The position numbers were made by a program, and so were the translations under genes. This document shows, in pieces, positions 1-5,244 of a stretch of DNA of 23,028 nt; position 1 is the stretch's first letter, and each line of letters begins with the position of its first letter. The DNA is from a virus: positions 1 to 23,028 of IMG/VR virus record IMGVR_UViG_3300044691_000252. One strand, written 5' to 3'. The notes beneath the pieces are model-generated. The model worked only from the letters and a program-made list of their open reading frames with translations. It had not been told where the DNA came from and made no database searches.

Positions 1-478
1 AGACCTGATCCCAGACCTGAGCCCCGACCTGAGCCCCGACCTGAGCCCAGACCTGAGCCCCGACCTGAGCCCCGACCTGATCCCCGACCTGAGCCCCGAC
101 CTGATCCCCGACCTGAGCCCCGACCTGATCCCAGACCTGATCCCAGACCTGATCCCAGACCTGAGCCCCGACCTGAGCCCCGACCTGAGCCCAGACCTGA
201 GCCCCGACCTGAGCCCGCGCTTTCCCGCCCACGGCTGTCATTGCGCCGATGATGATGTCTGGTGCGATTGCCTGGGCGAAAGCTCCCGCATATGGGGAGT
301 CAACCCAGATGATGAATTGTGGTGCGGGGAGGTTTGCGGCTTTGTAGGCGAGTCGTACTCCGCGTTCGGCATCTGGTCGGTTGGCGGGTTGGGTGGATAG
401 TCCACGGGCGAGCCATTCGTCACGAATTTTGGGTAGGAGCTCGAGTTGGGCGCTTGTGAGCGTTTCGATTTTTTTCAT
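1..478 (-). CDS. QV-repeat protein, 3' end beyond the window (DUF6745-like N-terminus)
   Basis: The frame is open from the ATG at 478 to the window edge (159 codons), so the C-terminus is missing. The ATG overlaps the stop of the upstream gene as ATGA (475-478), which fixes the start. Residues 1-87 form a compact domain beginning [11 protein letters not shown], with an [11 protein letters not shown] stretch and a hydrophobic [13 protein letters not shown] segment. From residue 88 there are 18 tetrapeptide repeats of the form [G/W/R][A/D]QV, encoded by a 12-bp tandem repeat. From memory this layout (RDEWL domain followed by QVWxQV repeats) occurs in actinobacterial and actinophage proteins annotated DUF6745 or hypothetical; function unknown. 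Unusually many repeats carry Gly (GGG) where I would expect Trp (TGG) or Arg (CGG). It is the last visible gene of the leftward early operon. Gene confidence is high, family confidence moderate. Confidence 0.8.
2..217. repeat. 12-bp tandem repeat, 18 copies, in frame
   Basis: Unit GACCTGAkCCCm on the plus strand, 18 consecutive copies with exact 12-bp period and no indels (starts at 2, 14, 26 ... 206). Only two positions vary systematically, G/T at unit position 8 and C/A at position 12, with one G at the last unit. On the minus strand these become Ala/Asp and Gly/Trp/Arg choices in the QV-repeat protein. The left end of the array is cut by the window edge, so the true copy number may be higher. 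Confidence 0.95.
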
Positions 479-1953: not shown

Positions 1954-2232
1954 TTAGGGGTTATCCGGGGTCATGGGGGTTTTCTCCGTAGAGGCAGACA
2001 AACGCTTCGCGGAACGGTCGGTGAGGCCGAACGGGTTCGGGGCAACCACAGATGTGGTGTTGTCGGTGACGTACCGCTCGAGGGCTTCCACCGGGAAGGT
2101 GAGGAGTCGACCGGTTTGGATGGCACCAATCTTGTGCTGCCGAACCAACGCGCGGAGGCGACGCTCACCATCGATGCCGGGTTGGTTGAGGCGCAGATAC
2201 TCGACCGCTTCAGGGAGGGAGAGGACAGTCAC
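1954..2232 (-). CDS. Excisionase-like helix-turn-helix protein
   Basis: This encodes 92 aa from a GTG start at 2232 that overlaps the upstream stop as GTGA. The longer open frame to 2385 is rejected because it is antiparallel noise inside the upstream gene. Residues 1-60 (TVLSLPEAVEYLRL, RRLRALVRQHKIGAIQTGR, LLTFPVEALERYV) follow the MerR/excisionase-type pattern: 'pEAa.yL', a helix with RALVR, the turn GAIQTGR, and LLTFPVEALERYV as wing plus helix. About 30 residues of polar tail follow. Such proteins act as recombination directionality factors or small regulators. The phage encodes a tyrosine integrase at 3687-4901, so a partner excisionase is expected. The operon position, downstream of the divergent switch, fits lytic-phase expression. 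Confidence 0.7.
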   Translation of the reverse strand: MTVLSLPEAVEYLRLNQPGIDGERRLRALVRQHKIGAIQTGRLLTFPVEALERYVTDNTTSVVAPNPFGLTDRSAKRLSASTEKTPMTPDNP

Positions 2233-2540
2233 GCTGCAACCTCGATCCCGAGTAGTTCCGTTACACGAGACACGACTTCGGAGTATTTCTTCGTCAGCGG
2301 GAACGTCCGCCCAGTGATGCCTGTTCGGTCGTTCTGTTCGTAAACGTCCCAGCCGATCCAGACCTGCTCGTTCTTGCGCCACCATTGGTCGTGAACCTCG
2401 ACTGTGCTATCACCGTGACGGATGGCGATGAAGTGAGCCGTGCGACCGGTGCCGCTACGGGCGGTGACGTGGCATTTGATGCCTGCTTCGTTGAGGCGCG
2501 CTTCGAGCTTCATCCAACTCGCCACGGTCGCGGCGCTCAT
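2229..2540 (-). CDS. Hypothetical phage protein (103 aa)
   Basis: The ATG at 2540 overlaps the stop of the HTH gene as ATGA (2537-2540); the open frame extends a further six codons to 2558, with no benefit. The product has an N-terminal helix (SWMKLEARLNEAGIKCHV). A beta-rich middle carries many aromatic residues (HFIAIRHGDSTVEVHDQWW, NEQVWIGWDVY), and a C-terminal helix ends in LLGIEVAA. No family recognised. It sits between two DNA-binding proteins in the early operon and is coupled to both through 4-bp overlaps. A regulatory or anti-host role is guesswork. Confidence 0.7.
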   Translation of the reverse strand: MSAATVASWMKLEARLNEAGIKCHVTARSGTGRTAHFIAIRHGDSTVEVHDQWWRKNEQVWIGWDVYEQNDRTGITGRTFPLTKKYSEVVSRVTELLGIEVAA

Positions 2541-3452: not shown

Positions 3453-3709
3453 TGCCAGCGGGGAGGAATGCGCAACCGGGACCGTTGACTTTCGCGGTCG
3501 CGGCAATCCTCCACAGCGCCTTCCTCGAGCTGCTGATCACGCAAGCTAAGTTCGGCGCTCGGTTGGGGATTCCACAAACAACGGTGTCCGACTACCTTCG
3601 CGGGGCGAGGGTCATCGATGTTGAAACGTTGGCGCGCCTGTGTGAGGCTCTCGACCTTGACATGGTGCGGGTGATCGAGTTCGCGGTCAACTCTCTAACT
3701 GAGGCATAG
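3452..3709 (+). CDS. XRE-family HTH regulator, convergent with integrase
   Basis: This encodes 85 aa from a GTG at 3452 directly downstream of a leaderless-type promoter. Residues 20-78 give a clear XRE HTH: AILHSAFLELLITQ, AKFGARLGIPQTTVSDYLRGA (helix-turn-helix with recognition helix TTVSDYL), then DVETLARLCEALDLDM and VIEFAV. The 3' end overlaps the integrase 3' end by 23 bp on the opposite strand, so transcription of the two genes would interfere. It is expressed away from the lytic operon, so this is the other candidate for the lysogenic repressor or an int regulator. It is short for a classical repressor, but actinophage repressors of this size are plausible. Confidence 0.75.
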   Translation: MPAGRNAQPGPLTFAVAAILHSAFLELLITQAKFGARLGIPQTTVSDYLRGARVIDVETLARLCEALDLDMVRVIEFAVNSLTEA

Positions 3710-4901
3710 CGCCGGCGAGCAGCCGACCGATTGTTGCGGCTGGTGCGTTCATCTGTTCAGGGAGGATGTGTGAGTACGTTTTCTCTGTCGTCTCGATCGA
3801 CTCGTGGCCGAGCCTTCGTTGGACGACGAACATGGAGTTGCCGTCCGCGAGGAGCCAGCTCGCGTGAGAGTGACGCAGGTCGTGGATGCGAGGCATCTTC
3901 CGTATCGGCTCCGCGGCGGGTGTGCGGTCCCAGATGCCACCGGTACGGGGACGGTAGGCGTCTCCGGTCCCTCTCGTCTTATCGAAGGCTGCCAGCCCGT
4001 TAGCGAGGCGTCTAGCGGGGTTCCACACCTCGAGGTAGAAGTGGGAGTGGTTCACCGGTTTGCCTGACGGGGTTTCGAACAGGTACGTCCGACCCATGAG
4101 GGGCACGAGTTCGTGCGCCAGGTCGTCATCGAACGAGACAGTGCGACGCGAGCGGGAGGTTTTCGGCGGCCCGATGTACCACCCGTTCTCTTTCGAGGAC
4201 TTCCACGCCTTGGAGACATGAAGGGTTCGGGCCTCCAAGTTGATGTCGGCGGGGGTGAGTGCCACTGCTTCACCCCATCGGAGGCCGGTTGCAGCCAGCA
4301 GGTACACCAACGATTGGTAGTGCGGGTGAATGTAGGAGAGCAGGGTGGTGAATTCGTCAGGGGTGAGAAAAACATTCTCGGGGGTGACCGTTTTCTTGAT
4401 CCGCGTTTTCGTGCACGGATTCCGTCGAATCAACTCGTCCTGAAGCGCGGACCTCATAAGGGACGACAGAAACCCGTGACGGTTCTGAATCGACTTCGAC
4501 GCTGCGCCTTTGGCGGCTTGCTCGTTCACCCACTTGCTAACCAGTTCGGCCGACACCACCTCAAGAGGCAGGTCTCCGAACGCGGGAGAGATGTGATTGC
4601 TCATGAACATCCGGTAATGATCTGCCGTCTTGGGTTCAAGCCCGGATTTGGCGGCAATGAATGTGACGGCGTATTCGTCAACGGTGGGACCGTTGGCCTT
4701 GATGCCGCTACTGAGAAGTTTGACGGCTTCGGTGGGGCCGATCTGTCGGACGACACGCGCCCACTTTTCGGCCGCGTCAGAGCTCACGAACGACTTGGAC
4801 TTGGATGAACCGTCGAGCCTGTACCGGACATCCCAGGAGACGGTTCCGTTGCGTTGCGGGCGGGGGCGCACCGTCGCCCCGAAGTTCGCTTTTGTGACCA
4901 T
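3687..4901 (-). CDS. int: Tyrosine-family phage integrase
   Basis: This encodes 404 aa. ATG at 4901 is chosen because AGAGG lies 5 nt upstream; the frame extends to a GTG at 4922, but that lies inside a GTGGCA arm-site cluster and has no ribosome-binding site. Order: N-terminal AP2-like arm-binding region (about 15-55, WDVRYRLDGSSKSKSF), SAM-like core-binding domain (about 70-165), catalytic domain (about 175-400). Catalytic residues visible: R208 in ATGLRWGEA, a likely Lys near 247 (PPKTSRSRR), H340 and R343 in HDLRHSHAS, H366 in RRLGHES, and nucleophile Y376 in KTYSHI. All are intact, so it should be active. It integrates the phage at a tRNA gene, judging by the adjacent tRNA 3' fragment. 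Length is usual for the family. Confidence 0.95.
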   Translation of the reverse strand: MVTKANFGATVRPRPQRNGTVSWDVRYRLDGSSKSKSFVSSDAAEKWARVVRQIGPTEAVKLLSSGIKANGPTVDEYAVTFIAAKSGLEPKTADHYRMFMSNHISPAFGDLPLEVVSAELVSKWVNEQAAKGAASKSIQNRHGFLSSLMRSALQDELIRRNPCTKTRIKKTVTPENVFLTPDEFTTLLSYIHPHYQSLVYLLAATGLRWGEAVALTPADINLEARTLHVSKAWKSSKENGWYIGPPKTSRSRRTVSFDDDLAHELVPLMGRTYLFETPSGKPVNHSHFYLEVWNPARRLANGLAAFDKTRGTGDAYRPRTGGIWDRTPAAEPIRKMPRIHDLRHSHASWLLADGNSMFVVQRRLGHESIETTEKTYSHILPEQMNAPAATIGRLLAGAMPQLES

Positions 4902-4955
4902 TTCGACCTCTTTTACTGCCACAGGCGTGGCAGCGTGCCACAGCCAACTTCCGCT

Positions 4956-4961
4956 AGTTTA
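4956..4961 (-). promoter_or_regulatory. Candidate -10 box for int
   Basis: TAAACT on the minus strand fits TAnnnT and would start a transcript around 4949, giving a leader of about 48 nt before the int ATG. It lies between candidate arm sites, which would allow integrase to repress its own gene. No good -35 hexamer is seen, so this is tentative. Confidence 0.3.
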
Positions 4962-5043
4962 CGCGGCCTGTGGCATCGGGACGTGGCATGGAACTCGTGA
5001 ATCGCACTATCTGTCACAAAAGTGCTGGTCAGAACGCTACTAA

Positions 5044-5076
5044 ATTGTGCCGGTGGTGGGACTCGAACCCACAAAC
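5044..5076 (-). other. attP: tRNA 3'-end fragment, probable attP core
   Basis: On the minus strand this reads as a T-arm (GTGGG-TTCGAGT-CCCAC, five perfect pairs with the canonical TTCGA loop), then CACCGGC as the 3' acceptor strand and a discriminator A. The sequence upstream does not give a GCCGGTG acceptor partner, D-arm or anticodon arm, so it is not a complete tRNA gene. Phages that integrate into a tRNA gene carry exactly such a 3' piece as the identity segment of attP, so the gene is restored after integration. Location directly upstream of int supports this. The tRNA identity cannot be read from the fragment. Confidence 0.65.
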
Positions 5077-5244
5077 AGAGTGCTCGCTGAGGGGTAAAAC
5101 CGCTGAAACTCGCGGAATCCCAAACGCCCGAAACCCGTCAAAACCGGGAGAGTGTGGCACGCTGCCACACAATTACCCATTCCGTGGAGCCGCTCGCCCA
5201 GCTTTCCTCCAATTGGGGTCTCGCGTTGTGGTGCTGTCAGGGCC

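What the first reader, a model, noticed from the sequence alone, without database searches (positions are those of the whole stretch)
4917..5170. Compact attP: tRNA 3' fragment flanked by seven TGCCAC arm-type sites
The T-arm and acceptor 3' strand of a tRNA (5044-5076) sits between five copies of TGCCAC/GTGGCA on the int side and two on the other side, the last two forming a perfect 19-bp palindrome. Such clustering of a hexamer around a core is far above chance and gives a concrete prediction of the recombination sequence and the integrase arm motif.
Basis: partly seen in the sequence, partly recalled or inferred. Interest (0 to 1): 0.7.

Follow-up and report, generated by a model that had tools for sequence, protein, structure and literature searches.

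The report
Phage attachment site with arm sites
This short stretch is where a virus of actinobacteria (family Microbacteriaceae) most likely splices itself into the host's leucine-tRNA gene, with seven copies of the short sequence its integrase is expected to grip; it is a well-supported new example of a known kind of site.

Summary
TGCCAC occurs seven times in 4917-5168, against 19 in the rest of the 23-kb record. The tRNA piece is the T-arm and 3' acceptor of tRNA-Leu(CAA): 29-30 bp (5044-5073) are identical to this gene in Microbacteriaceae. An integrase 42% identical to the window's sits beside exactly this tRNA gene in Mycetocola zhadangensis, in an element bounded by 29-bp direct repeats.

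The decisive evidence is a second attP, in another Microbacteriaceae genome (G217). Its integrase is 48% identical and its core is a different tRNA (Arg-CCT), yet it has the same hexamer. All five of its sites match window sites in order, orientation and distance: -100/-91 from the T-loop and -87/-74/-21 from the int ATG.

More distant actinophage integrases (about 30-36%) often keep the layout but with other hexamers. Putative arm sites flanking tRNA or tmRNA cores are published for mycobacteriophages (PMC3203893, PMC3706429).

Verdict: the attP of a lambda-type tyrosine integrase, a new member of a known kind. Binding and crossover were not tested experimentally. A link between integrase residue R33 and base 4 of the hexamer is suggestive, with one apparent exception.

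The parts
3687..4901 (-). tyrosine integrase gene (404 aa from ATG 4901; the mechanical ORF starts at GTG 4922)
   Evidence: Pfam Phage_integrase 1e-19 and PHROG integrase 1e-69; related to Tn1549 Int and lambda Int in the PDB; R215, H347, R350, H373 and Y383, the expected catalytic residues, present and invariant in six relatives; residues 14-72 modelled as three strands and a helix
4917..4922 (+). arm-type site nearest int (TGCCACA), 21 bp before the int ATG
   Evidence: same distance from ATG (-21) in the 48% relative
4927..4932 (-). extra arm-type site, inverted partner of the next one
   Evidence: absent in the 48% relative
4936..4941 (+). extra arm-type site
   Evidence: absent in the 48% relative
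4970..4975 (-). arm-type site, near half of the direct pair (13-bp spacing)
   Evidence: same distance from ATG (-74) in the 48% relative
4983..4988 (-). arm-type site, far half of the direct pair
   Evidence: same distance from ATG (-87) in the 48% relative
5044..5073 (-). common core: T-arm and 3' acceptor end of tRNA-Leu(CAA)
   Evidence: 29-30 bp identical to tRNA-Leu(CAA) of Microbacteriaceae
5154..5159 (-). arm-type site of the inverted pair beyond the core
   Evidence: same distance from the T-loop in the 48% relative
5163..5168 (+). arm-type site of the inverted pair beyond the core (3-bp spacer)
   Evidence: same distance from the T-loop in the 48% relative
1954..2385 (-). small HTH_17-like protein, candidate excisionase
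   Evidence: Pfam HTH_17 4.6e-5, just under the curated cut-off; similar to a protein on the relative's contig; function not shown

Best explanation
This is the attP of a lambda-type tyrosine integrase in a temperate tailed phage of Microbacteriaceae. The core-binding and catalytic domains act on the T-stem/T-loop inverted repeat in the core. The N-terminal arm-binding domain grips TGCCACA sites on both sides, about 80-150 bp from the T-loop on the int side and 91-100 bp on the far side. A DNA-bending host factor presumably folds attP so that integrase subunits bridge arms and core, and recombination with tRNA-Leu(CAA) follows. Integration puts int next to the tRNA and restores its 3' end, so the tRNA stays functional. 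The sites next to the int start may also let integrase control its own expression. Shown here: the sequence features, the matching host tRNA, positional conservation in a relative, and a natural integration by a related integrase at the same gene. Inferred: binding, bending, crossover position and autoregulation.
For: Seven hexamers clustered around the core. Core identical over 29-30 bp to tRNA-Leu(CAA) of Microbacteriaceae, and the in-silico junction is still a tRNA-Leu. Integrase of 42% identity in a 17.9-kb element inserted at this tRNA in M. zhadangensis, with a 29-bp repeat at both junctions. Five of five sites at matching positions in a 48% relative whose core is a different tRNA, Arg-CCT. 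Arm domain modelled as three strands and a helix (pLDDT about 67-83); best structural match an AP2 DNA-binding domain (Z 5.5), with integrase arm-domain structures among the weaker rows (Z 3.2-3.5). Similar layout with other hexamers in other actinophages, where arm-type sites had been predicted before (PMC3203893).
Against: No binding or integration experiment. The host is unknown; the record is a metagenomic contig. The M. zhadangensis integrase, at the same tRNA, has no clear array of its own in this layout. About half of the more distant integrases show no such layout upstream of int. The structural Z-scores are low.
Confidence: 0.93

Rival explanations
1. The TGCCAC sites are operators of a phage repressor or other regulator, or iteron-like sites, that merely lie around an attP core.
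For: Three sites sit directly before int, and inverted pairs look like operators. TGCCAC clusters without such an integrase beside them occur in other viral contigs. The window has HTH regulators nearby.
Against: Sites lie on both sides of the core, and in the 48% relative they keep exact distances to the core and to int although the target tRNA changes. The small HTH gene beside int in the window has no detectable similarity to the one on the relative's contig. In other phages the hexamer differs from integrase to integrase.
Confidence: 0.05
2. The stretch is a prophage junction (attL or attR), or an assembly chimera, not an intact attP.
For: The record is a metagenomic contig without end repeats.
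Against: Both arm sets flank one core, phage-type genes lie on both sides, and there is no tRNA gene. The same two-armed layout recurs in G217.
Confidence: 0.02

Closest known systems
attP of cluster K mycobacteriophages (CrimD, Anaya, Adephagia; PMC3203893)
   Same: Core at the 3' end of a tRNA-like gene (tmRNA), 5' of int; predicted paired arm-type sites on both sides; in CrimD and Validus I find the same inverted pair with 3-bp spacer and a direct pair 12 bp apart.
   Different: Other hexamers (GTCCAC, ATCCAC, ATCAAC), tmRNA instead of tRNA-Leu, four or five sites instead of seven, integrases only about 34-35% identical, other hosts.
attP of cluster J mycobacteriophages (Omega, BAKA; PMC3706429)
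   Same: tRNA-Leu target, paired putative arm sites flanking the core, and an inverted pair of arm-like sites at the int start, proposed there as possibly regulatory.
   Different: 44-bp core reaching the anticodon loop, attP on the 3' side of int, arm consensus TGCATAC, direct-repeat pairs.
Lambda Int and attP
   Same: Arm-binding, core-binding and catalytic domains; sequence relationship detectable.
   Different: From general knowledge: lambda's arm sites have another sequence and arrangement, and its attB is not a tRNA gene.

Membership tests
Lambda-type (bivalent) tyrosine integrase with attP | Tyrosine recombinase catalytic residues | tested here: met
   R215, H347, R350, H373 and Y383 present and invariant in six relatives; candidate lysines K241 and K254 too; Pfam
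Lambda-type (bivalent) tyrosine integrase with attP | Separate N-terminal arm-binding domain | tested here: inconclusive
   Model of residues 14-72 has three strands and a helix; best matches are an AP2 domain (Z 5.5) and, among many unrelated rows, integrase arm domains (Z 3.2-3.5). Consistent but low Z.
Lambda-type (bivalent) tyrosine integrase with attP | attP core identical to a chromosomal attB | tested here: met
   29-30 bp identical to tRNA-Leu(CAA); a related element sits there
Lambda-type (bivalent) tyrosine integrase with attP | Repeated arm-type sequences on both sides of the core | tested here: met
   Five and two sites; conserved in a relative
Lambda-type (bivalent) tyrosine integrase with attP | Integrase binds the arm sites; a bending host factor is needed | not testable with these tools
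   Needs biochemistry
Lambda-type (bivalent) tyrosine integrase with attP | Excisionase (directionality factor) | tested here: inconclusive
   HTH_17-like protein at 1954-2385 with a relative on the G217 contig; role not shown
attP layout seen in cluster K phages | Inverted arm pair with 3-bp spacer beyond the core and direct pair before int | tested here: met
   Spacer 3; direct spacing 13 against 12 in cluster K
tRNA-dependent lysogeny (PMC10865867) | Integration breaks the host tRNA and a phage tRNA replaces it | tested here: not met
   The core restores the tRNA 3' end in an in-silico join; no tRNA gene in the window, which may be an incomplete genome

The most novel reading that the evidence does not exclude
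Many actinobacterial tyrosine integrases share one attP grammar: an inverted arm pair with a 3-bp spacer about 100 bp beyond the core, and a direct pair 11-13 bp apart before int. The hexamer is tuned largely by one residue of the arm domain's second strand (R33 here, residue 19 in CrimD/Anaya): Arg with C at position 4, mostly Leu (also Val or Ser) with A. This would make arm specificity predictable from sequence.
Probability: 0.35. Interest if true: 0.6.

Novelty: new member of a known kind. Interest (0 to 1): 0.38.

Why it matters
It gives a testable attP/attB pair for Microbacteriaceae, a possible basis for integration vectors. The window/G217 pair shows arm sites keeping their sequence and position while the target tRNA changes, which is direct comparative evidence that they belong to the integrase. 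The comparison across actinophages extends a published guess about which arm-domain residue reads the arm site (PMC3203893) to more distant integrases.

Tried and rejected
Close integrase relatives in IMG/VR: none from peptide patterns; the two-sequence alignment gave only distant C-terminal matches. The full two-arm DNA pattern gave no hit in IMG/VR. The int-side pattern gave nine; none has an integrase like this one beside the sites (one has a 26% integrase match about 1.3 kb away), and several are unrelated TGCCAC clusters. An exact 33-bp core pattern found no bacterium, because identity stops at 29-30 bp. The proteobacterial-looking and other tRNA-Leu hits in viral contigs were set aside: many carry an encoded CCA, and the integrase matches there are weak (25-28%). 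An apparent relic of the tRNA anticodon arm just upstream of the core was not pursued; it may be chance. No sigma-70-like promoter was found at int. The single-sequence AlphaFold model is good only for residues 14-72, so the other domains were not interpreted from it. The small HTH gene beside int in the window showed no similarity to the one on the relative's contig, so gene-by-gene synteny is not claimed beyond the HTH_17 protein.

Full report
What the sequence shows. The window is a 23,028-bp virus record with 60.5% G+C. It holds a terminase large subunit, an SPP1-type portal, a SU10-type major capsid protein and a minor tail (tape-measure-like) protein on the minus strand, and a tyrosine integrase at 3687-4901(-). 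In the gap upstream of int, TGCCAC occurs seven times in 252 bp. With the first 1500 bases and their two coding tandem arrays set aside, no hexamer clusters more densely, and 1 of 200 shuffles reached seven for any hexamer anywhere. The '19-bp palindrome' is GTGTGGCA-CGC-TGCCACAC, and its 15-bp centre recurs in reverse complement at 4927-4941. The mechanical int ORF starts at GTG 4922, inside the first site. ATG 4901, behind AAAGAGG, is a better start and is close to the start of relatives.

The core and the host. Reading the minus strand, 5073-5044 is TGTGGGTTCGAGTCCCACCACCGGCACAAT. A scan of about 85,000 species genomes for GTGGGTTCGAGTCCCACCACCGGCACAA found 17 loci, 16 of them Microbacteriaceae. 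Sixteen loci hold an intact tRNA-Leu(CAA) gene, 15 of them in Microbacteriaceae. Identity with the window spans 29-30 bp, and joining a host 5' part to the phage core still yields a tRNA-Leu in ARAGORN. The seventeenth, in Mycetocola zhadangensis, is a displaced 3' fragment. The intact tRNA lies 17.9 kb away, next to an integrase 42% identical to the window's, and the two junctions share a 29-bp repeat. That element looks like a genomic island rather than a phage (a weak DUF2637 match; my reading of its other ORFs). It shows that this tRNA is a real target for a related integrase.

The sites are conserved where it counts. The best relative found (48%) is on a 3.2-kb contig of another Microbacteriaceae genome, G217. 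It has an intact attP with five TGCCAC sites. Relative to the T-loop its inverted pair sits at -100 and -91, exactly as in the window. Relative to the int ATG its other three sites sit at -87, -74 and -21, again exactly as in the window. The window has two more, at -40 and -31. The only length change is 12 bp, about one helical turn, between core and direct pair. The G217 core is a different tRNA: it matches tRNA-Arg(CCT) of the same genome over 28 bp. So the hexamers go with the integrase, not with the target. The int-side pattern is found once in 400 Microbacteriaceae genomes, at this attP, while the reversed control pattern hits a handful by chance.

Layout in more distant integrases. In 24 integrase loci (the window, G217 and 22 others, at roughly 30-41% identity), an inverted hexamer pair with a 3-bp spacer and at least four copies upstream of int occurs in nine. 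It occurs in 44 of 4800 shuffles and in 33 of 742 control windows from the same loci. The hexamers differ: GTCACC (Squirty, LilSpotty), TTCAAC (Mufasa8), GTCCAC (Shandong1, Chris, Validus), ATCCAC (ZoeJ). CrimD, read later, has ATCAAC in the same arrangement. Several of these phages are close relatives, so the nine are not independent. The cluster K paper had predicted pairs of arm-type sites flanking a tmRNA core there (PMC3203893), and the cluster J paper noted an inverted pair of arm-like sites at the int start (PMC3706429).

A hint of a recognition rule. Among loci with an inverted N3 pair whose hexamer I read as an arm site, the residue aligned with R33 is Arg in the six with C at hexamer position 4: the window, G217, Shandong1, Chris, Validus and ZoeJ. 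It is Leu, Val or Ser in the ten with A there: Leu in Mufasa8, Sonali, DeadP, CrimD, G599 and a Rhodococcus plasmid; Val in Squirty and LilSpotty; Ser in SwagPigglett and Pippy. PMC3203893 had named residues 17 and 19 in CrimD/Anaya; 19 is the same column by my count. Limits: I chose the register of each hexamer, lineages repeat, loci without a clear motif were left out, and Arthrobacter phage Shoya (Val) has a direct TGCCACA pair, an apparent exception. This is a lead, not a result.

Mechanism. By homology to lambda-type integrases and the predicted arm-domain fold, the N-domain should bind TGCCACA, with core binding and catalysis at the T-arm repeat. The core carries the whole 3' end of the tRNA, so integration should leave it intact. 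Direct binding, the exact crossover, the bending factor and the excisionase are inferred.

Verdict. This is a new member of a well-known kind, with unusually good comparative support.

Noticed in passing
window 2-216 and 1250-1405: Two tandem arrays, 12-bp units (about 18 copies) and 9-bp units (about 17 copies), inside minus-strand ORFs that encode 4-residue (AQVG/DQVW-like) and 3-residue (AAY/TSA-like) repeats; no Pfam domain above its cut-off. Role unknown.
   Followed up: partly
G001:C1:1011788-1029701 (L060), Mycetocola zhadangensis: A 17.9-kb element at tRNA-Leu(CAA) that looks like a genomic island with possible defence-type genes rather than a phage; both its ends carry similar terminator-like sequences next to the tRNA 3' end.
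   Followed up: partly
L101, upstream of int (Arthrobacter phage Shoya): A direct pair of TTGCCACAG between a tmRNA-like core and int, although the integrase is only about 30% identical and has Val at the R33 column.
   Followed up: no
L082, L086 (IMG/VR contigs, 67-68% G+C): Clusters of GGTGCCAC-type repeats with no integrase like this one nearby; possibly iterons or operators.
   Followed up: no
window 5074-5092: Just upstream of the core on the tRNA strand, GCGAGCACTC resembles the tRNA-Leu(CAA) anticodon arm GCGGAGCACTC; perhaps a decayed longer core, perhaps chance.
   Followed up: no
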